This document shows positions 2,947 to 15,737 of a DNA stretch of 16,052 bases, in pieces. The position numbers and the translations under genes were made by a program. Where the stretch lies: assembly GCF_004138495.1 (NCBI RefSeq), contig NZ_ML142849.1:487050-503101 (forward strand), written 5' to 3'. The stretch is from Phytoactinopolyspora endophytica (GTDB taxonomy: Bacteria > Actinomycetota > Actinomycetes > Jiangellales > Jiangellaceae). The notes below the pieces were generated by a model, which saw nothing but the letters and a program-made list of their open reading frames with translations, was not told where the DNA came from and did not search any database. The stretch's first letter is position 1. Each line of letters starts with the position of its first letter.

Positions 2947-2962
2947 TGTGCCTTCTCTCTTT

Positions 2963-3016
2963 CATGATCATCGAGGATAAGGGGCGTTATGGCGCCAGTA
3001 ATACTCGATGATCATG
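2963..3016. promoter_or_regulatory. Paired palindromes (inverted repeat) upstream of the DAO gene
   Basis: CATGATCATCGAG (2963-2975) and its exact reverse complement CTCGATGATCATG (3004-3016) form a perfect 13-bp inverted repeat with a 28-nt spacer. Each arm contains the 8-bp palindrome ATGATCAT, with centres 44 bp apart, close to four helical turns. This suits two dimeric repressor sites bound on one DNA face, possibly by looping. The spacer is AT-richer than its surroundings and could hold the promoter of the oxidoreductase; a weak TATCCT-like -10 is visible on the minus strand. It also lies 3' of the response regulator, so a terminator role is possible, but the 28-nt loop makes that less likely. 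Confidence 0.5.
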
Positions 3017-3028
3017 GAAACTGCCTGC

Positions 3029-8074: not shown

Positions 8075-8124
8075 CCGAGAGGTGCGCTCACAGCCCTACC
8101 GGGCCATGAGCGCACGTCCCTCGG
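8075..8124. terminator. Hairpin with conserved GCCC-TACC-GGGC loop between convergent genes
   Basis: CCGAG (8075-8079) pairs with CTCGG (8120-8124), and GTGCGCTCA (8082-8090) with TGAGCGCAC (8107-8115). The loop 8091-8106 can close further as GCCC-TACC-GGGC. It sits between the permease stop (8061) and the MerR-type stop (8127-8129), a natural place for a bidirectional terminator; there is no T-tract. The loop plus adjoining bases (CTCA-C-AGCCC-TA-CCGGGCCA) match the loops of the long hairpins at 9156-9274 and 15618-15737, although the stems are unrelated. Confidence 0.7.
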
Positions 8125-8126
8125 AC

Positions 8127-9086
8127 TCAGGCTCGCAGGGCCGCGGCGAACCACTCCATCGTCGCGACGCCGCCACTCCGGCTCGGATCCTGCGGCCAGC
8201 CGTTGACGACGCCGACGAGCTCCCAGAACCGCTCCACGCGGCGGTCGGAAAAGGTCGTGATCTCGTCCGCCAGCCGCCGCCGGAAGCCTGGTCCGTCGTC
8301 CGTGCCCCGGAGAGCGGCGAACGCCTCGGCCAGCTCGCGGATCGTGTCCTGTGCCCGCTCGGACTCCGGCGCGACGCCGGCCTCCCGCAACGGTCCCGCC
8401 ACGGCCGACACCCGTCCGAACAGCTCCGCCTGCTCCGCGCCTGCAGCCGCCGCCTCGTCCGACCCGCGGGCGTCGTGCGAGGCCTGCGCCATCTGGCGCA
8501 CCCGCGCCCGGTAGTCCGGGTCTTGCACCAGCTCTGCCAGCTCGATCCAGGCGTCGACCTGCTCCTGACTGGGGTCGTCGGGCAGATCGATCTGGACCGA
8601 CCGGGACATCTGGACGAATTGCGGGTCCAGGTCCAGGCCCGAGAAGGTCTCGTCCCAGTACTCGTCGATGATCCGCTGCCGTTCCTCGGCGGACAGCTGT
8701 GCCAGCCTGTTCATGGTCTCCAACTCCTTCTGGTCGTCGATCCCCAGCCTGGACACGGCCCGCAGCACCGAACGGCGCGCCCGCAGGATGCGCATCTGCG
8801 CGTCGATGGCCGCAGCATGGCTCGTCGCCAGCTCGCTCAACGTGACTGCCCGATCCAGGAACGCCCGGATCGACGCCAGATCGAAGTCGAGGTCGCGCAG
8901 CGTGCGGACCAGGTCCAGCCTCGCCACCGCGCTCGCGTCGTAGAGCCGGTAGCCAGTCGGAGATCTATCGGTCGACGGCACCAGGCCGATGTCGGCGTAG
9001 TAGCGGACCGTCTTGACCGGCAGCCCGGTCCGCTCCGCCGCTTCGCCGATGGTCAGCCAGACGTCGTCGTTGTTCACGCGATCCAC
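8127..9086 (-). CDS. MerR-family transcriptional regulator
   Basis: The 319-aa product carries an N-terminal MerR winged helix: WLTIGEAAERTGLPVKTVRYYADIGLVP (about 10-37), then GYRLYDASAVARLDLVRTLRDLDFDL. A dimerising helix follows (about 80-115). The remaining 200 residues are helical, acidic and of no family I can name; presumably they sense a ligand. No Cys cluster of metal-sensing MerR proteins is visible. The start is GTG 9086, six nt after GGAAGG; the long in-frame extension upstream is translated intergenic repeat, not protein. It converges on the ABC permease and may control that operon or itself; a MerR-like dyad lies over its own ribosome binding site and upstream region. Confidence 0.9.
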   Translation of the reverse strand: MDRVNNDDVWLTIGEAAERTGLPVKTVRYYADIGLVPSTDRSPTGYRLYDASAVARLDLVRTLRDLDFDLASIRAFLDRAVTLSELATSHAAAIDAQMRILRARRSVLRAVSRLGIDDQKELETMNRLAQLSAEERQRIIDEYWDETFSGLDLDPQFVQMSRSVQIDLPDDPSQEQVDAWIELAELVQDPDYRARVRQMAQASHDARGSDEAAAAGAEQAELFGRVSAVAGPLREAGVAPESERAQDTIRELAEAFAALRGTDDGPGFRRRLADEITTFSDRRVERFWELVGVVNGWPQDPSRSGGVATMEWFAAALRA

Positions 9087-9090
9087 GGTG

Positions 9091-9115
9091 AACCTTCCAG
9101 TCGCTGGAGACTCAA
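9091..9115. promoter_or_regulatory. MerR-like dyad upstream of the regulator
   Basis: The stretch CTTCCAG-TCG-CTGGAGA (9094-9110) is an imperfect dyad of the shape MerR proteins bind. On the minus strand TTGAGT (9115-9110) stands a 19-bp spacer away from 9090, the long spacer MerR promoters use, but the -10 position reads CACCGT, which is poor. The dyad overlaps the GGAAGG ribosome binding site, so autorepression is possible. Confidence 0.35.
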
Positions 9116-9116
9116 A

Positions 9117-9152
9117 TCCATGACAAAGATCCTGTCCATGACAAAGATCCTG
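9117..9152. repeat. 18-bp perfect tandem repeat upstream of the MerR gene
   Basis: TCCATGACAAAGATCCTG occurs at 9117-9134 and again at 9135-9152 with no spacer. On the minus strand each unit carries TTGTCA, one base from the consensus -35. The repeat lies between the MerR-like dyad and the long hairpin, and could be a duplicated promoter or operator unit or a slippage product. Confidence 0.85.
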
Positions 9153-9155
9153 CCT

Positions 9156-9274
9156 GGCTGTACGGCACGGGAGAGGGGTCTCCCGGCTCAAGCCCAACCG
9201 GGCCACAGATCACCCACACCGGCCTGCGCCACGCAACCCGCCGCCGGGAGACGCCTCTCCCGTGCCGTACAGCC
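9156..9274. repeat. Long hairpin element, copy 1 (31-bp arms, 57-nt conserved loop)
   Basis: Arms 9156-9186 and 9244-9274 are complementary over 31 bp with one mismatch (9177/9253). The 57-nt loop (9187-9243) matches the loop of the hairpin at 15618-15737: 24 of the first 25 bases agree, and both contain CACCG and CACGCAACC further on. The loop begins CTCA-AGCCC-AA-CCGGGCCA. Each arm is also self-complementary (CGGGAGA-GGGG-TCTCCCG at 9168-9185; CGGGAGA-CGCC-TCTCCCG at 9245-9262), so two short hairpins are an alternative to the long one. It lies downstream of ctaB and upstream of the MerR gene, with the core reading opposite to both genes. Function unknown. Confidence 0.85.
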
Positions 9275-9329
9275 AACATGCTGCCGCCCAGTGTCAAGGC
9301 AGATAGGTCGGCCCCAGGATGCAGGCGGG

Positions 9330-10322
9330 TCAGCCGAGGATGAGGACGTCGGCCATCACGGCGACGAACGTGATCGTGAGATAGGTGATCGAGCCGTGGA
9401 ACAGTCGCATCGCCTTCAACGAGGCGTCAGACGGGTCACGACGCGCCCTGCTGTGCAGGTGATGCGCCTCTGCCAGGAACCACACGCCGGCCACGACCGC
9501 GCCCAGCCCGTAGATCCACCCCAGGTCACCGACCGGCCACAGCACCAGTGACGTCGCCACCATCGACCAGGAATAGGCCAGTATCTGCGCTGCCACCGTC
9601 GTGGCCGGAGCCACCACCGGCAGCATCGGCACCCCGGCGCGCTCGTAGTCCTCGCGGTAGCGCATGGCCAGCGGCCAGTAGTGCGGAGGGGTCCAGAAGA
9701 ACACGATCAGGAACAGCAGCACCGGAGGCCAGTCGAGGCTTCCGGTCACCGCCGCCCAGCCGATCAGCGTCGGAAGACAGCCGGCGACGCCGCCCCAGAC
9801 GATGTTCTGTGTGGTGCGCCGCTTGAGCAGCACGGTGTAGATGAAGACGTAGAACAGGTTCGCCGCGGCGGTCAATCCGGCAGCCAGCGGATTCACCCAG
9901 ACCGCCATCATCACCACGGCCATCACGAGCAGCACGGAGGCGAACGCGAAGCCCGCACCGGGTGAGACCACTGCCATCGCGACCGGGCGTCGGCGTGTGC
10001 GATGCATCACGGCGTCGATGTCCCGTTCGAGCACCTGGTTGAACGCGTGCGCGCTCCCCGCTGCCAGGGTGCCGCCCATAAGCGTGATCGCCGCGAGCCA
10101 CAACGGTGGGATGCCCCGCTCCGCCAGGACCATCGCCGGGAGTGTGGTGACGAGCAACAGCTCGACGACTCTCAGCTTCATGAGCGAGACATAGGCACCG
10201 GCGGTCTGCCGCCACCCCACGGGCTGTCCCGTCCGCGAACTGACCGGCCGGGCACCGGTGTGCGTGGCCGTACGGTCCATGATCCGCGTCACATCGGCGC
10301 CGCGTTGTTCCAGGGCCGTCAC
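9330..10322 (-). CDS. ctaB: Protohaem IX farnesyltransferase (haem O synthase)
   Basis: This is a UbiA-type prenyltransferase that adds a farnesyl group to haem B to give haem O, the precursor of haem A in aa3 oxidase. The first Asp-rich motif NQVLERDIDAVMHRTRRRP lies near residue 95, and the second region WPLAMRYREDYERAGVPMLPVV carries the paired acidic residues and the CtaB-specific GVPMLPVV. Eight or nine hydrophobic helices fill the rest. The start is uncertain: GTG 10322 has AAGGA 5 nt upstream, while ATG 10328 has that sequence directly abutting it; ATG 10280 is also possible. The product is about 330 aa, slightly long because of a polar N-terminus. The position divergent from tkt is the usual actinobacterial one. 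Confidence 0.95.
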   Translation of the reverse strand: MTALEQRGADVTRIMDRTATHTGARPVSSRTGQPVGWRQTAGAYVSLMKLRVVELLLVTTLPAMVLAERGIPPLWLAAITLMGGTLAAGSAHAFNQVLERDIDAVMHRTRRRPVAMAVVSPGAGFAFASVLLVMAVVMMAVWVNPLAAGLTAAANLFYVFIYTVLLKRRTTQNIVWGGVAGCLPTLIGWAAVTGSLDWPPVLLFLIVFFWTPPHYWPLAMRYREDYERAGVPMLPVVAPATTVAAQILAYSWSMVATSLVLWPVGDLGWIYGLGAVVAGVWFLAEAHHLHSRARRDPSDASLKAMRLFHGSITYLTITFVAVMADVLILG

Positions 10323-10328
10323 GGTCAT

Positions 10329-10587
10329 CCTTAGCAATGGTGGGCGGTTTGCCGGCGGTGTCGGAACAACCGCCACGAATATCGGGTTCGAGTTTAACGG
10401 TGAGGTACTTCGCATCGATCGCCGGGCACGCCGGAGTAGGACACTCGGTGAACGAACCGGCGGCCGCCGCACGGCGCGCGAAGGGCGCCACTAGGCTCGA
10501 GCTCGTATCCCCCGGCCGATGAATTATTGTCTGGCTCGACGGGCCACCACGGAAGGGACCGGTCACTATGGAAGGAACGGCGTACCT
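10329..10587. promoter_or_regulatory. Divergent intergenic region ctaB / tkt
   Basis: These 259 nt hold the promoters of both genes. A 7-bp inverted repeat GGCGGTT (10343-10349) / AACCGCC (10368-10374) lies close to the ctaB start. TAGGCT at 10492-10497 matches the actinobacterial -10 pattern on the plus strand, which would give a tkt leader of roughly 85 nt, but no clear -35 precedes it. GAAGGA (10571-10576) is the likely tkt Shine-Dalgarno, 11 nt before the GTG. No riboswitch fold is recognisable. Confidence 0.35.
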
Positions 10588-12684
10588 GTGAACACAACTC
10601 CAGCTAACTCCACCGGTCTCGAGTGGTCCGAGCTCGACGACCGCGCCGTAGACACCGTCAGGCTCCTGGCCATGGATGCCGTGGAAGAGGTCGGCAACGG
10701 CCACCCGGGCACGGCCATGAGCCTCGCCCCGGTCGCTTACACCCTCTACCAACGTGTGCTTCGTCACGATCCGTCCGACTCGGCCTGGCTCGGGCGGGAC
10801 CGGTTCGTGCTCTCCGCAGGCCACAGCAGCCTGACGCAGTACATCCAGCTGTACCTGTCCGGGTACGACGTCACCCTGGACGATCTCAAATCGTTCCGCA
10901 CGTGGGGATCCCGCACTCCGGGGCACCCCGAGTACGGCCACACCGACGGTGTCGAGGTCACCACCGGGCCGCTGGGCTCCGGCTTCGGCTCCGCCGTCGG
11001 CATGGCGTTCGCCTCCCGCCGGGTACGCGGGCTGCTCGATCCCGACGCGGCGCCCGGAGAGAGCGTCTTCGACCACCACATCTACGTGATCGCCTCCGAC
11101 GGCGACCTCGAGGAGGGTGTCTCCAGCGAGGCGAGCTCGCTCGCCGGCACGCAGGAGCTCGGCAACCTCATCGTCCTCTGGGACGACAACAAGATCTCCA
11201 TCGAGGACGACACCAACATCGCCTTCACCGAGGACACCGTCGCCCGCTACGAGGCGTACGGCTGGCACACGCAGGTGGTCGACTTCACCAGCCCGGAGTA
11301 CCGGGAGAACCCGCAGGCCGTGTTCGAGGCGCTGCAGGCCGCCAAGGCCGTCACCGACCGCCCGTCGTTCATCGCGGTGCGCACCATCATCGGCTGGCCC
11401 GCCCCGAACAAGCAGAACACCGGCGCGATCCACGGTTCCGCGCTGGGCGCCGACGAGGTCGCCGCCACCAAGCGGATCCTCGGCGCCGACGAGGAGAAGA
11501 GCTTCGACGTCGCAGACGACGTGATCGCGCACACGCAGCTCGCGGTCGACCGCGGAAAGAAGCTGCATGCCGAGTGGGATGAGCGCTATGCAGCCTGGCG
11601 GGACTCGAACCCGGAGCGCGCCGCCCTCCTGGACCGGCTGCGTGAGCGGAAGCTGCCGGAAGGCTGGACCGACGCCCTTCCCGAGTTCGAGCCCTCCGAG
11701 AAGGGCATCGCCACCCGCGCCGCGTCGGGCAAGGTGCTCAACGCGATCGCTCCGGTGCTGCCGGAGCTGTGGGGCGGCTCAGCCGACCTCGCCGGTTCGA
11801 ACAACACCACGATCACCAGCGAGCCGAGCTTCCTGCCGGAGAAGCGCTCCAGCGAGATGTTCCCGGGCCATCCCTATGGGCGCACGCTGCACTTCGGTGT
11901 GCGTGAGTTCGCCGGTGGGCTGATCGCGAACGGCATCGCGCTGAACGGGCTCACCCGGCCGTACGCGGCCACGTTCCTGGTCTTCAGCGACTACCAGCGC
12001 GCCGCGGTCCGGCTCGCCTCGGTGCAGCAGATCCCGACGACGTTCGTGTGGACGCACGACTCCATCGGCCTCGGCGAGGACGGTCCCACACACCAGCCCG
12101 TCGAACATCTGACGGCACTGCGCGCCATCCCGGGCTTCGACGTGGTGCGGCCGGCTGACGCGAACGAGACGGCCGTCGCCTGGCGGACCATTCTGGAGCG
12201 CAACCACAAGCCGGCGGGCATTGCGTTGACGCGCCAGGGACTCCCGATCTACGACCGCTCGGTGTACGCGTCCGCGGAGGGCGTGGCGAAGGGCGCCTAC
12301 GTCTTCGCCGAGGCGGACGGCGGCGATCCGGCGGCGCTGATCATGGCCAGTGGATCCGAGCTACAGATCGCCGTCGAGGCCCGTGAGCAACTCCAGTCGC
12401 AGGGTATTCCTACACGTGTGGTGTCGTTCCCATCGCACGAGTGGTTCGATGAGCAGAGCGACAAGTACAAGGAGTCCGTGCTGCCGTCGAGCATCAAAGC
12501 CCGGGTCGCGGTGGAGGCCGGCGTCGCCATGAGCTGGTACCGCTATCTCGGTGACGCTGGACGGGCGGTCAGCCTCGAGCACTTCGGGGCGTCCGCCGAC
12601 TACAAGATCCTCTTCCGCGAGTACGGCTTCACCGCCGAGGCGGTCGCCGCGGCCGCCAAGGAGTCGATCGAAGCCGCACGATGA
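10588..12684 (+). CDS. tkt: Transketolase
   Basis: The 698-aa, thiamine diphosphate-dependent enzyme transfers two-carbon ketol units between pentose and hexose phosphates in the cytoplasm. Visible landmarks are the N-terminal GNGHPGTAMSLAP (about 36-48), the cofactor motif SDGDLEEG through DDN (D171 to N201), and the pyrimidine-domain glutamate E440 in HFGVREFAGG. The substrate-binding run HDSIGLGEDGPTHQPVEHL is also present, followed by the C-terminal transketolase domain. Length and domain order are normal. The start is GTG 10588 (VNTTPANSTG), with GAAGGA upstream; the earlier in-frame codons read through non-conserved sequence. It is first in the tkt-tal-pgi-zwf series. A 96-nt gap with a hairpin separates it from tal. 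Confidence 0.97.
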   Translation: MNTTPANSTGLEWSELDDRAVDTVRLLAMDAVEEVGNGHPGTAMSLAPVAYTLYQRVLRHDPSDSAWLGRDRFVLSAGHSSLTQYIQLYLSGYDVTLDDLKSFRTWGSRTPGHPEYGHTDGVEVTTGPLGSGFGSAVGMAFASRRVRGLLDPDAAPGESVFDHHIYVIASDGDLEEGVSSEASSLAGTQELGNLIVLWDDNKISIEDDTNIAFTEDTVARYEAYGWHTQVVDFTSPEYRENPQAVFEALQAAKAVTDRPSFIAVRTIIGWPAPNKQNTGAIHGSALGADEVAATKRILGADEEKSFDVADDVIAHTQLAVDRGKKLHAEWDERYAAWRDSNPERAALLDRLRERKLPEGWTDALPEFEPSEKGIATRAASGKVLNAIAPVLPELWGGSADLAGSNNTTITSEPSFLPEKRSSEMFPGHPYGRTLHFGVREFAGGLIANGIALNGLTRPYAATFLVFSDYQRAAVRLASVQQIPTTFVWTHDSIGLGEDGPTHQPVEHLTALRAIPGFDVVRPADANETAVAWRTILERNHKPAGIALTRQGLPIYDRSVYASAEGVAKGAYVFAEADGGDPAALIMASGSELQIAVEAREQLQSQGIPTRVVSFPSHEWFDEQSDKYKESVLPSSIKARVAVEAGVAMSWYRYLGDAGRAVSLEHFGASADYKILFREYGFTAEAVAAAAKESIEAAR

Positions 12685-12703
12685 CATCCCCACACAGACA
12701 GAT

Positions 12704-12753
12704 GTTGCGTCCCGCAGAGTGAGGGCCACAAGCCACCGGCTGCAGGACGCAAC
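12704..12753 (+). terminator. Hairpin between tkt and tal, relative of the conserved-loop family
   Basis: The arms 12704-12717 (GTTGCGTCCCGCAG) and 12740-12753 (CTGCAGGACGCAAC) pair over 14 bp with one mismatch around a 22-nt loop. It begins 19 nt after the tkt stop and could set the tkt:tal transcript ratio by partial termination or by protecting a 3' end. The loop and right arm share GGGCCACA, then ACCGGC and ACGCAAC, in the same order as the loop of the element at 9156-9274, but the match is interrupted. Confidence 0.55.
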
Positions 12754-12780
12754 GAACCGCAAGCAATGGAGCTGATCGCT

Positions 12781-13896
12781 ATGACCACTGACCGAACACC
12801 TCTAGCGCAGTTGTCCGACGCCGGCGTCGCGGTCTGGCTGGACGACCTGTCCCGCGACCGCATCACCACCGGCAACCTGCGGCACCTGATCGACGGCTGG
12901 CACGTCGTCGGCGTCACCACGAACCCGTCGATCTTCCAAGCCGCGATCTCCAAGAGCAGCCTGTACGACGACGACCTTCGGACCCAGGCCGAACGGGGCT
13001 CCACCGCTGATGCCGCCGTACGTCAGCTCACGACCGACGACGTGCGGGCGGCCGCCGATCTGTTCGCCTCGGTGGCCGAGCGCAGCGACATCGGTGATGG
13101 ACGGGTGTCCATCGAGGTGGACCCCCGGCTGGCGCACGACACCGATGCCACCATCTCGCAAGCGCGCGAGCTGTGGGCCGATGTTGGCAAGCCGAACATC
13201 TTCGTCAAGATCCCGGCCACCAAAGCCGGGTTGCCCGCCATCACGGCGACCATCGCGGCGGGGATCAGCGTCAACGTCACGCTGATCTTCTCCATCGAGC
13301 GCTACCGCGAGGTCATGGACGCCTACCAGGCCGGTCTGGAGCAGCGTCTCGCCGCGGGCGGATCGCTGGACGGGATCGCTTCGGTCGCGTCGTTCTTCGT
13401 CAGCCGCGTCGACGCCGAGATCGACAAGCGGCTCGAGTCGATCGGCACCGATGAGGCACTGGCGCTTCGCGGGAAGGCGGCCATCGCCAACGCCCGCGCG
13501 GCCTATGCCGCCTACGAGGACGTCATCGCCGACGAGCGGTGGAAGCGTCTGGAGGCTGCCGGTGCCAAGCGGCAGCGCCCGCTCTGGGCGTCCACCTCGA
13601 CGAAGAACCCGGACTACCGGGACACCATGTACGTCGAGGACCTGGTGGCGCCGGACACCGTGAACACGATGCCCGAGTCCACCCTCGAAGCCGTCGCCGA
13701 CCACGGCGAGATCACCGGCGACACCGTCCGCCCGAACAGTGCGGACGCTGAGCAGACGCTGGCCGCGATCGAGTCCGTCGGTATCGACCTGGCGGATGCC
13801 ACGCAGGTCCTGGAGGACGAGGGCGTGGAGAAGTTCGAGTCCAGCTGGAACGACCTGCTGGACTCGGTCAACGCGAAGTTGGAGGCGGCGAAGTGA
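12781..13896 (+). CDS. tal: Transaldolase
   Basis: The 371-aa enzyme of the non-oxidative pentose phosphate pathway transfers dihydroxyacetone units from sedoheptulose 7-phosphate to glyceraldehyde 3-phosphate through a Schiff base. The transaldolase signature [13 protein letters not shown] lies at about residues 44-56. The catalytic lysine is K143 in [15 protein letters not shown], followed by [14 protein letters not shown]. The length fits the longer actinobacterial transaldolase class rather than the short 220-aa form. The start is ATG 12781, with GGAG 9 nt upstream; ATG 12766 in the same frame has no ribosome binding site. The stop codon overlaps a GTG that opens a 40-codon linker ORF leading to pgi. 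The C-terminus KLEAAK is echoed in that linker's last residues. Confidence 0.96.
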
Positions 13897-14024
13897 CGAG
13901 CGAGCGCAGTGGTCGCCGCCCATCGACGACGACCGCACACCCGAGACCAACCGCGGCGCCCGCGCAGCAAGCGAGGACCGGAGCGCCGACCAGCGAAATG
14001 GAGGCGGCGAAGTGACGAGCGAGC
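13880..14024 (+). repeat. 26-bp direct repeat duplicating the pgi initiation region
   Basis: A 26-bp sequence beginning TGGAGGCGGCGAAGTGACG occurs at 13880-13905 and identically at 13999-14024, offset 119 bp. Each copy contains a full GGAGG, a 7-nt spacer, a GTG start and the next codons ACG AGC GAG. The first copy is the end of tal; the second starts pgi. The intervening segment keeps an open frame. Confidence 0.95.
13893..14015 (+). CDS. Possible 40-aa linker ORF between tal and pgi
   Basis: It opens at GTG 13893, overlapping the tal stop as GTGA, with GGAGG (13881-13885) 7 nt upstream. It closes at TGA 14013-14015, overlapping the pgi GTG as GTGA. The peptide begins [10 protein letters not shown], is rich in Thr, Ala, Pro and Arg, and ends SEMEAAK, mimicking the tal C-terminus. 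It has no recognisable domain. Most likely it is a by-product of the duplication that keeps ribosomes moving from tal to pgi, rather than a functional protein. Initiation signals are as good as those of pgi. Confidence 0.35.
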
Positions 14025-15604
14025 TCACCGTGGCTGTGCACGGCGTCGACACGACGGATGCCGTGGACCGGCTCGTCGCCGACAAGGTCGCCTCGCGAAC
14101 CGCGGCCAAGGATCCCACCCTCTGGGGGCCGGACGCCGAGGCCGAAGCGTCGATCCGGCTCGGCTGGACCGACCTGCACGAGACGTCGCGGCCGTTGCTG
14201 GCCGAGATCGAGGCGCTGCAGGCGGAGCTGCGTGCCGAAGGGCTCGACCGGATCGTCCTCGCCGGCATGGGCGGCTCCTCACTGGCGCCGGAGGTGATCA
14301 CCCGCACCGCCGGCGTCGAGCTGACCGTCCTGGACACGACTGACCCGGCGGCGATCAAGCGGGCCCTGGCCGACCGGCTCGAGCGCACAGTGCTGGTCGT
14401 GTCCAGCAAGTCCGGCACCACCGTCGAGACCGACAGCCAGCGACGCGTCTTCGAGGCGGCGTTCACCGATGCCGGCATCGACGCCGCGTCGCGCATCGTC
14501 GCCGTCACCGATCCCGGTTCGGCGCTCGCGGAGACCGCCGAGCAGTCCGGTTACCGGCGGCTGTTCCTGGCCGATCCGAACGTCGGTGGCCGCTACTCGG
14601 CGCTCACCGCGTTCGGTCTGGTGCCCAGCGCCCTTGCCGGTGCCGACATCGCCGCGCTGCTGGACGAGGCGGACGCTGTCGCCGGCCGACTGGCGGACGA
14701 CGCCTCTGACAACCCGGCGCTGCTGCTCGGCGCCACGCTGGGGATCGGCGTCGCCGGCGGCCGCGACAAGGTCGCGATCGCCGACGCCGGATCCGGCATC
14801 TCAGGCTTCGCCGACTGGGCCGAGCAGCTCATCGCCGAGTCGACCGGGAAGCTTGGCACCGGCCTTCTTCCCATCGCCGCGGACATCGACGATCCGGAGA
14901 TCCGCTGGTCGGCCTCCGACGTGCTGCCCGCTATCGTCGGAACCCCCGAGTCCGCCCCGGACACAGGCGTCGTCGTCACCGGGGCGTTGGGCGCGCAGTT
15001 CCTGCTCTGGGAGTACGCCACCGCCGTCGCCGGCCGGCTGATCGGCATCAACCCGTTCGACCAGCCCGATGTGGAGAGCGCCAAGGTCGCCGCGCGCAGC
15101 CTGCTCGACGCCCGTCCGGAGCCCGAGACACCCGCGTTCGTCGACGGTGGCGTCGAAGTTCGCGGCTCCGCCGGCCTGCTGGACGGTGTGAGCTCCCTGG
15201 AGGGCGCCGTCGAGTCGCTGCTGAGCCAGCTCGACGAGAACGGCTACCTGGCGGTGATGGCCTACCTCGACCGGGAGGGTGCGGACTCCGACCTTGCACA
15301 GGTCCGGGTGCCACTGGCTCGCCGCACCGTGCGGCCCACCACCTATGGATGGGGTCCACGGTTCCTGCACTCGACCGGCCAGTACCACAAGGGCGGACCG
15401 GAACAGGGCGTATACCTGCAGGTCACCGGGGCGATCTCGGACGACCTCGCGGTTCCGGACCGGCCCTTCACCTTCGGCCAGCTCATCTCCGCGCAGGCCG
15501 CGGGAGACGCCACGGTGTTGGCCGAGCACGGCAGGCCGGTCCTCCGGCTGCACCTCACCGACCGAGCCAAGGGCATTGCCCGTCTGAGGGAGATACTTCA
15601 GTGA
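14012..15604 (+). CDS. pgi: Glucose-6-phosphate isomerase
   Basis: The 530-aa enzyme interconverts glucose 6-phosphate and fructose 6-phosphate, linking glycolysis with the pentose phosphate genes around it. Two SIS-type domains are visible: IVLAGMGGSSLAPEV, the phosphate loop SSKSGTTVET (about 131-140), and GGRYSALTAFGLVPSALAG. The likely catalytic glutamate is E276 in EQLIAESTGKLG. The C-terminal FLHSTGQYHKGGPEQG carries H453 and K460. The sequence resembles the isomerase half of the bacterial transaldolase-isomerase fusion proteins more than E. coli Pgi, which fits its place beside tal. The start is GTG 14012, with GGAGG 7 nt upstream. Downstream, a long hairpin element fills the gap to zwf. 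Confidence 0.95.
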   Translation: MTSELTVAVHGVDTTDAVDRLVADKVASRTAAKDPTLWGPDAEAEASIRLGWTDLHETSRPLLAEIEALQAELRAEGLDRIVLAGMGGSSLAPEVITRTAGVELTVLDTTDPAAIKRALADRLERTVLVVSSKSGTTVETDSQRRVFEAAFTDAGIDAASRIVAVTDPGSALAETAEQSGYRRLFLADPNVGGRYSALTAFGLVPSALAGADIAALLDEADAVAGRLADDASDNPALLLGATLGIGVAGGRDKVAIADAGSGISGFADWAEQLIAESTGKLGTGLLPIAADIDDPEIRWSASDVLPAIVGTPESAPDTGVVVTGALGAQFLLWEYATAVAGRLIGINPFDQPDVESAKVAARSLLDARPEPETPAFVDGGVEVRGSAGLLDGVSSLEGAVESLLSQLDENGYLAVMAYLDREGADSDLAQVRVPLARRTVRPTTYGWGPRFLHSTGQYHKGGPEQGVYLQVTGAISDDLAVPDRPFTFGQLISAQAAGDATVLAEHGRPVLRLHLTDRAKGIARLREILQ

Positions 15605-15617
15605 TACGCACGCAGAG

Positions 15618-15737
15618 GCTCCGGGATTCTCGGGTTGGGGGTCTGGAGGCTCAAGCCCAGCCGGGCCACAGATCGACCGCACCGACACGGACACGCAACC
15701 ACCTGCCTCCAGACCCCCAAGCTGTGAATCCCGGAGC
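15618..15737. repeat. Long hairpin element, copy 2 (split stem, 56-nt conserved loop)
   Basis: The outer arms 15618-15629 and 15726-15737 pair over 12 bp. After a 5 x 5 nt internal loop, inner arms 15635-15649 and 15706-15720 pair over 15 bp. The 56-nt loop (15650-15705) starts CTCA-AGCCC-AG-CCGGGCCAC and is homologous to the loop at 9187-9243, while the arms share no similarity with those at 9156-9274. It occupies most of the 182-nt gap between pgi and zwf, with the core on the same strand as these genes. It may reduce read-through, process the transcript or bind a factor; no direct evidence separates these. Confidence 0.85.

What the first reader, a model, noticed from the sequence alone, without database searches (positions are those of the whole stretch)
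8075..15737. Family of intergenic hairpins with a conserved loop and unrelated, self-pairing stems
Seen: at 8091-8106, 9187-9243 and 15650-15705 the loop carries CTCA-(C)-AGCCC-NN-CCGGGCCA, which itself can fold as GCCC-NNCC-GGGC. The two long copies agree at 24 of the first 25 loop bases. Their stems (31 bp with one mismatch; 12 + 15 bp; 5 + 9 bp) have no sequence in common. Ordinary palindromic repeats (REP, BOX, MITEs) conserve their arms. Here the arms vary but still pair, which is compensatory change as in a structured RNA or a protein-recognised loop. All three copies sit between genes. I do not know a named family with this pattern.
Basis: partly seen in the sequence, partly recalled or inferred. 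Interest (0 to 1): 0.72.

Follow-up and report, generated by a model that had tools for sequence, protein, structure and literature searches.

The report
Hairpins with fixed loop, changing arms
This actinobacterium carries dozens of long DNA hairpins whose 50-letter loop stays nearly the same while the paired arms change together from copy to copy, which makes them a natural record of how hairpins spread and stay paired, though what they do is unknown.

Summary
Two of the three reported hairpins (9155-9275, 15618-15737) belong to a dispersed repeat family; the third (8075-8118) is a unique, short hairpin and not a member. The window's genome has 47 full copies: a ~55-nt loop beginning TCAAGCCCARCCGGGCCACA between long arms. 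The arms are not unrelated: they form three diverged lineages, and pairing is kept through double changes (91.8% of cells paired; 220 both-side changes versus 73 in shuffles). The loop is absent from four congeners, which lack the hairpin between pgi and zwf, so that copy was probably inserted. Relatives carry a sister family with another conserved loop. At four orthologous loci its loops are 90-96% identical, its arms only 48-69%, yet the arms still pair. Some copies lie in frame inside genes; at one such site the loop faces opposite ways in different species. No Rfam, plasmid, phage, viral or Y1-transposase match was found. Best reading: non-autonomous mobile palindromes whose arms are rewritten from each other by replication template switching, a published process that also inverts spacers, while an unknown factor constrains the loop. 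Mobiliser, mechanism and loop function are inferred. Compensatory change holds; 'structured RNA' is not established.

The parts
9155..9187 (+). copy A, left arm (33 nt, 32 of 33 paired)
   Evidence: inverted repeat I1; model hit G000:C1:496202-496327, 103.4 bits
9188..9242 (+). copy A, conserved loop (55 nt, TCAAGCCCAACCGGGCCACAGATC...)
9192..9203 (+). copy A, invariant mini-hairpin GCCC-AACC-GGGC inside the loop
   Evidence: 4 of 4 pairs unchanged in 44 of 44 copies; no covariation, so its pairing is not itself supported
9243..9275 (+). copy A, right arm
15618..15650 (+). copy B, left arm (33 nt, 30 of 33 paired)
   Evidence: inverted repeat I2; model hit G000:C1:502665-502787, 98.4 bits
15651..15704 (+). 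copy B, conserved loop (54 nt)
15655..15666 (+). copy B, invariant mini-hairpin GCCC-AGCC-GGGC
15705..15737 (+). copy B, right arm
   Evidence: the hairpin is absent between pgi and zwf in 4 of 4 congeners
8079..8118 (+). third reported hairpin: a unique short hairpin, not a family member
   Evidence: one match in the genome; fold
14012..15604 (+). phosphoglucose isomerase gene (pgi), upstream of copy B
   Evidence: PF00342
15787..16052 (+). glucose-6-phosphate dehydrogenase gene (zwf, runs off the window), downstream of copy B
   Evidence: PF00479 N-terminal domain
9330..10280 (-). UbiA-family prenyltransferase gene (start uncertain); copy A lies beyond its 3' end
   Evidence: PF01040
8127..9080 (-). 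MerR-family regulator gene (stretch as tested; start uncertain); copy A lies upstream of it
   Evidence: PF13411

Best explanation
The two hairpins are copies of a non-autonomous mobile palindrome of the family Jiangellaceae. A loop of about 50 nt is the conserved, recognised part; the arms only need to pair. New copies are inserted, mostly just beyond gene 3' ends, sometimes in frame inside genes. Once in place the hairpin extrudes as single-stranded DNA at replication forks, and template switching copies one arm onto the other. A mutation in one arm is thereby written into its partner, so arms drift quickly but stay paired, and now and then the loop is flipped. SHOWN: dispersal; absence of copy B's hairpin in four congeners; paired divergence of arms between copies (this family) and at orthologous loci (sister family); loop conservation; in-frame copies; loop in both orientations at one orthologous site. 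INFERRED: insertion rather than fourfold loss, template switching as the cause, single-stranded DNA as the form acted on, and an unknown trans-acting factor that reads the loop.
For: 47 copies in G000, none credible in congeners. Hairpin absent at pgi-zwf in 4 of 4 congeners. Covariation: 220 both-side cells versus 73.1 shuffled, score 0.467 versus 0.151, slid controls at most 0.166. Within copies 0.879 of the first 22 arm positions pair; with right arms dealt among copies the highest of 2000 was 0.681. Sister-family orthologues, 4 loci and 6 comparisons: loop identity 0.90-0.96, arm identity 0.48-0.69, own pairing 0.71-0.96, pairing with arms swapped 0.50-0.65; 45 pair positions changed on both sides and still paired versus 26 changed and broken in at least one. 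A hairpin in frame in a hydantoinase/oxoprolinase gene stays paired in G011, G009, G003, G002 and G004, with the loop in opposite orientations. Published template switching homogenises arms and inverts spacers (PMC8604942, abstract and passages; PMC8794818, abstract and start of introduction). G-C/C-G swaps are common among pair types. One-sided tandem duplications, 7 right versus 0 left of 47, and 39 of 47 copies with negative GC skew on the loop strand suggest events tied to replication direction.
Against: No mobilising gene was found: Y1_Tnp PF01797 is absent from 5 of 5 genomes searched; other enzyme classes were not searched. No exact target-site duplication at the arm ends. The sister family shows no skew bias (G001 0.010 +/- 0.010, H. 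alba 0.017 +/- 0.011), and its tandem duplications are 3 right versus 1 left of 35. Enrichment between convergent genes, 21 of 46 versus 17% of intergenic length, fits a 3'-end RNA role as well. At the hydantoinase site, independent insertions in both orientations are not excluded. The number of pairs with any both-side change was only slightly above shuffles (19 versus 16.7, reached by 13 of 500). Whether double changes arise as single events was not tested on a tree.
Confidence: 0.5

Rival explanations
1. RNA-level element: the hairpin is transcribed at gene 3' ends as a (bidirectional) terminator, stabiliser or processing site, the loop binds a protein or RNA, and ordinary selection on the RNA keeps the arms paired.
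For: Convergent regions enriched (21 of 46) and divergent ones depleted (2 of 46 versus 26% of intergenic length; chi-square p 1.7e-7). In H. alba 11 of the 15 hairpins classified follow a co-oriented gene by 0-30 nt. The loop is more conserved than the aligned coding flanks (0.90-0.96 versus 0.71-0.83).
Against: In-frame copies inside genes keep their pairing across genera. No G.T excess over A.C among arm mismatches in G000 (22 versus 21), and an A.C excess on the loop strand in the sister family (17 versus 5, p 0.017). Loop in both orientations at one site. T-tracts and transcripts were not examined.
Confidence: 0.25
2. Ordinary MITE or REP-like element moved by a transposase that recognises the arms as terminal inverted repeats; arm divergence is just age.
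For: Many short palindromic copies, mostly between genes; QMITE2, for instance, is mainly in 3' untranslated regions (PMC10969869, passages). Arms share a distant consensus.
Against: The arms are the least conserved part and the loop the most, yet 94% of aligned arm pairs still match in G000 (80 mismatches in 1361; local alignment trims bad ends, so this is an upper figure). No exact target duplication, no GTAG or CGTC tag, no Y1 transposase.
Confidence: 0.12
3. Loop-targeting: a short mobile loop inserts into pre-existing hairpin terminators, so the arms belong to the host site.
For: Long hairpins of all kinds are common here (42 in 400 kb of G000, members of this family included, versus 1 in the reversed control); arms in the sister family differ from site to site.
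Against: In G000 whole arms are shared by many loci, so they travel with the loop. In 50 orthologous regions of congeners for 24 G000 copies the copy's own arm matched no better than arms of other copies (mean score 7.38 versus 7.26).
Confidence: 0.08

Closest known systems
Rickettsia palindromic elements (RPE) and CGTC-tagged REPs
   Same: Dispersed palindromes, some in frame inside protein-coding genes (PMC10969869, passages); CGTC repeats are reported to lack a dedicated transposase (PMC3733652, abstract and passages).
   Different: No CGTC tag; the conserved part is a ~50-nt loop while the arms vary; another phylum.
GTAG REPs with RAYT transposases (REPtrons)
   Same: Many-copy palindromes near genes, hypothesised to be miniature transposons (PMC3733652).
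   Different: REPs are 20-40 bp with a GTAG tag; here ~120 bp, no tag, no Y1 transposase gene.
MITEs such as ERIC and Correia elements (PMC10969869, passages) and YPAL (recalled, no call)
   Same: Short palindromic repeats, mostly between genes, some in 3' untranslated regions.
   Different: MITEs are defined by terminal repeats and, at first, target duplications; here the arms vary and no duplication was seen.
Inverted repeats maintained by template switching (yeast genes, RNA genes, Nematomorpha mitochondria)
   Same: Arm homogenisation and spacer inversion; palindromes inside coding genes (PMC8604942; PMC8794818; PMC6649704; passages or abstract only).
   Different: In the yeast study inverted spacers were 2-5 bp; here one ~50-nt conserved loop recurs at dozens of loci.
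Integron attC sites (recalled, no call)
   Same: Sites that differ in sequence but fold alike and are recognised as folded single strands.
   Different: In attC the ends are conserved and the loop varies; here the reverse. No integron feature was tested.

Membership tests
REP/RAYT (GTAG REPs) | GTAG tag next to the palindrome | tested here: not met
   within 8 nt of the arms GTAG is found left 1, right 0 of 44 (G000) and left 1, right 0 of 35 (sister family); the reverse complement CTAC 0, 1 of 44 and 0, 2 of 35
REP/RAYT (GTAG REPs) | Y1 (HUH) transposase in the genome | tested here: not met
   PF01797 in 0 of 5 genomes including G000; the control rings in 5 of 14 genomes
RPE / CGTC REPs | CGTC tag at one end | tested here: not met
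   CGTC left 1, right 2 of 44 and left 0, right 4 of 35; GACG left 2, right 0 of 44 and 2, 2 of 35
RPE / CGTC REPs | in-frame copies in protein-coding genes | tested here: met
   1 of 47 in G000; nine sister-family loci read through by a reading frame, with Pfam domains around or on both sides in the two checked
MITE | conserved terminal inverted repeats | tested here: not met
   outer arm positions 19-27 have base entropy 1.4-1.9 bits of 2 over 45 copies
MITE | target-site duplication | tested here: inconclusive
   0 of 44 exact for k = 2-9 in G000, but the true element ends are not known
MITE / mobile repeat | presence/absence between relatives | tested here: met
   absent at pgi-zwf in 4 of 4 congeners
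Known RNA family (Rfam 15) | match above gathering score | tested here: not met
   window: five matches, all below gathering score and not at the hairpins; 8 loci: 0
Structured RNA | covarying helix | tested here: met
   also expected from DNA template switching
Structured RNA | transcription and RNA function | not testable with these tools
   no RNA data
Template-switch-maintained inverted repeat | arms kept alike in place while they diverge | tested here: met
   orthologous sister-family loci; the cause is not shown
Template-switch-maintained inverted repeat | spacer inversion between the arms | tested here: inconclusive
   loop in opposite orientation at the same site in G002, G004 versus G011, G009, G003; independent insertion not excluded

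The most novel reading that the evidence does not exclude
A kind of mobile element whose identity lies in a loop presented on a stem of almost any sequence: it is mobilised as folded single-stranded DNA by an enzyme that reads the loop, its arms are rewritten at replication forks, and lineages swap in new loops with, presumably, new partner enzymes, so that each has its own loop on the same kind of arms.
Probability: 0.25. Interest if true: 0.8.

Novelty: new variant of a known kind. Interest (0 to 1): 0.6.

Why it matters
Covariation is treated as the strongest sign of a functional RNA. Here is a repeat family, with copies inside coding genes, where paired change occurs at many loci around a nearly fixed loop. 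It offers a natural test of whether compensatory change comes from selection on RNA or from DNA template switching. If the loop is the recognition site, it also points to an undescribed mobilising or binding factor in Jiangellaceae.

Tried and rejected
Rfam match: none at the hairpins. Phages, viral contigs and plasmids (with a sister-family copy as query): no match. Y1 transposase: none. The idea that the flanks of type I copies carry a TNA target, as in some IS families, came from eyeballing; exact repeats at the arm ends were not found, and the TNA idea itself was not tested. The idea that arms are native terminators into which the loop inserts: own arms match orthologous regions of congeners no better than other copies' arms. 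Homology between the G000 loop and sister-type loops, in either orientation: not above shuffles (557, 1361, 1925, 322, 1742 and 1341 of 2000 as good or better). Membership of the 8075-8118 hairpin: rejected. The inverted-repeat paper on Proteobacteria that PMC6649704 cites could not be read.
Full report
WHAT IS IN THE WINDOW. Copy A (9155-9275) and copy B (15618-15737) are long hairpins with 33-nt arms, 32 of 33 and 30 of 33 positions paired, and loops of 55 and 54 nt. Folded as single-stranded DNA they are far more stable than shuffles (z -9.9 and -6.7). Copy A lies between the 3' end of a UbiA-family gene and the start of a MerR-family gene; copy B lies between pgi and zwf (Pfam). The third reported hairpin (8075-8118) occurs once in the genome and is set aside.

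HOW MANY COPIES. The loop pattern CTCAAGCCCNNCCGGGCCACA (up to 2 mismatches) has 46 places in the 7.6 Mb genome G000 and 0 for its reversed control. All 46, found by loop alone, have complementary flanks: arms of 25-37 nt in 44, 18 nt in one with masked bases, and 41 nt with 31 identities in one. A covariance model built from 44 of the 46 (two dropped for masked bases) finds 47 copies at 68 bits or more, one of them new, plus a degenerate one at 38 bits. That search scored 150 of 6547 first-look candidates, so weaker copies may be missed. In the 59 relatives eight genomes had a match, nine places in all, every one with 2 mismatches, against 18 places for the reversed control; the four congeners had none. 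Exact scans of genome contigs and viral contigs found none, although records near the window's genome may be left out there.

ARMS COVARY. On the 44-copy alignment 91.8% of cells are standard pairs (73.6% when 3' letters are dealt anew), 220 cells are changed on both sides (73.1 in shuffles) and the covariation score is 0.467 (0.151 shuffled; 0.090-0.166 in slid controls); the number of pairs with any both-side change is 19 versus 16.7, reached by 13 of 500 shuffles. The copies are related, so the shuffles overstate significance; the slid controls keep relatedness, but the structure came from this alignment. The mini-hairpin GCCC-NNCC-GGGC never varies, so covariation says nothing for or against it. 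The arms form three lineages ending ..GATCGCCAGGC..GATCTCCCGGC and ..GGTCTGGAGGC (my reading).

INSERTION. In the four congeners tested the pgi-zwf junction lacks the hairpin: in three the two genes appear to abut or overlap, in G002 about 40-50 other bases lie between them. Copy B therefore arose after these lineages split, or was lost in all four. For 24 further G000 flank pieces I searched the four congeners and examined 50 orthologous regions, which belong to 24 G000 copies. None showed the copy's arm above background (mean score 7.38, against 7.26 for arms of other copies). Fourteen of the 50 had some other long hairpin scoring 14 or more, one of them (G002, site of L035) with a sister-type loop.

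SISTER FAMILY. One hit in a congener had similar arms but another loop. That loop type..CTCGCTCGTNCCTCGCTCGCCGATGCCCG.., has 20 places in G001 by a partial pattern (2 mismatches) and 21 in Haloactinopolyspora alba (3 mismatches); it also occurs in Phytoactinopolyspora species and a metagenome bin (21 stretches in all). In a class-wide draw 6 of 296 genomes had it, all in the window's family and in 2 genera; G000 itself had none at that threshold, but holds variant sister-type loops. Pairing within the kept copies (0.949) is inflated by that choice; between copies it is 0.431. For 45 of the 47 G000 copies the figures are 0.879 and 0.624. No homology between the G000 loop and sister loops rose above shuffles. 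A similar loop appears once, by eye, in 200 kb of another genus (L293).

CHANGE IN PLACE. Four sister-family loci are orthologous between species, with aligned flanks 71-83% identical. Over six comparisons the loop is 0.90-0.96 identical, the arms 0.48-0.69, own pairing 0.71-0.96 and pairing with arms swapped between species 0.50-0.65; both-side changes that still pair total 45, changed and broken 26. Three of the six comparisons are at one locus and not independent. Arms thus change together at a fixed site while the loop is held. This was seen in the sister family; the G000 family had no orthologues to compare.

INSIDE GENES. Nine sister-family loci are read through by an open reading frame. 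Pfam confirms two: the hairpin lies within the hydantoinase C-terminal domain match of a hydantoinase/oxoprolinase gene, and between the membrane and ATPase domains of an ABC transporter. In G000 1 of 47 copies (L006) has coding signal on both sides; its upstream part is an FAD-binding enzyme, but no Pfam domain follows the hairpin, and congener matches stop before it, so this case is weaker. At the hydantoinase site eight genomes were read: G011, G009 and G003 have the hairpin with the loop one way, G002 and G004 with the loop the other way, starting 71-81 nt from a common point; G004's loop is enlarged to 103 nt; G001 has a short palindrome by eye only; G000 and G005 have none. Either the loop was inverted between its arms or the site was hit more than once.

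CONTEXT AND STRAND. Of 46 G000 copies 21 lie between convergent genes, 23 between co-directional and 2 between divergent ones, against 17, 58 and 26% of intergenic length in a 400-kb sample (chi-square p 1.7e-7; a simple gene caller of my own). Orientation follows the contig: 8 of 8 on C1, 5 of 5 on C4, 6 of 6 on C18, 3 of 3 on C5, 2 of 2 on C7, C11 and C22, but mixed on C3, C6 and C8. On C1 the loop strand is C-rich (skew -0.054) and carries fewer genes (132 of 363), which by general knowledge suggests the lagging strand; 39 of 47 copies have negative local skew. The sister family shows no such bias. In 7 of 47 G000 copies a 13-mer of the right arm recurs downstream, in 0 the left arm upstream; in the sister family 3 and 1 of 35.

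DNA OR RNA. If the sense RNA were selected, G.T mismatches should be tolerated more than A.C. In G000 they are 22 and 21; in the sister family 5 and 17 on the loop strand (p 0.017), the opposite of what sense transcripts predict. With in-gene copies and the reversed loop this favours DNA template switching, which is documented to homogenise arms and invert spacers (PMC8604942, abstract and passages; PMC8794818, abstract and start of introduction; PMC6649704, passages). The 3'-end enrichment keeps an RNA role alive.

KNOWN KINDS. REP and CGTC-REP tags, a Y1 transposase and conserved terminal repeats were tested and not met. It behaves like an RPE or a MITE in being dispersed and tolerated, but fails their tags or ends. 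In nine literature searches, judged from listings and from passages of seven papers, I saw no description of dispersed palindromes with a conserved loop and variable arms, nor of such repeats in these genera; most subscription papers are not in that library.

Noticed in passing
window 2960-3019: Palindrome with CATGATCAT near its outer ends (I3); resembles an arm-conserved hairpin family (CCATGATCATGAAC...) seen several times in the samples of G000, G001 and G002.
   Followed up: partly
window 12704-12753: Hairpin GTTGCGTCCCGCAG/CTGCAGGACGCAAC between two sugar-phosphate genes; a congener gene end has similar arms (L165).
   Followed up: no
L202:11500 and L207:1426: G000 also holds hairpins with sister-type loops (tcgcccgcggcgag... 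and atggtgtggcgggcatcag...), so two loop types coexist in one genome.
   Followed up: partly
L005, L013, L015, L020, L029, L035, L036, downstream of the right arm: Right-arm sequence, in some copies with part of the loop, is repeated in tandem on the right side only.
   Followed up: partly
window about 13884-13910 and 14000-14026: A direct repeat of about 24 nt (GGAGGCGGCGAAGTGACGAGCGAGC) at the end of one gene and the start of pgi, seen by eye.
   Followed up: no
400 kb each of G000 (L194-L213), G002 (L214-L233) and G001 (L234-L253): Long hairpins are frequent: 42, 29 and 66 versus 1, 4 and 3 in reversed controls, including several families with conserved arms.
   Followed up: partly
G000_L009 versus H. 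alba L143; G000_L031 (2533) versus H. alba L124: The same gene ends carry hairpins in both species, but with different loops and, as oriented by loop, opposite directions.
   Followed up: partly
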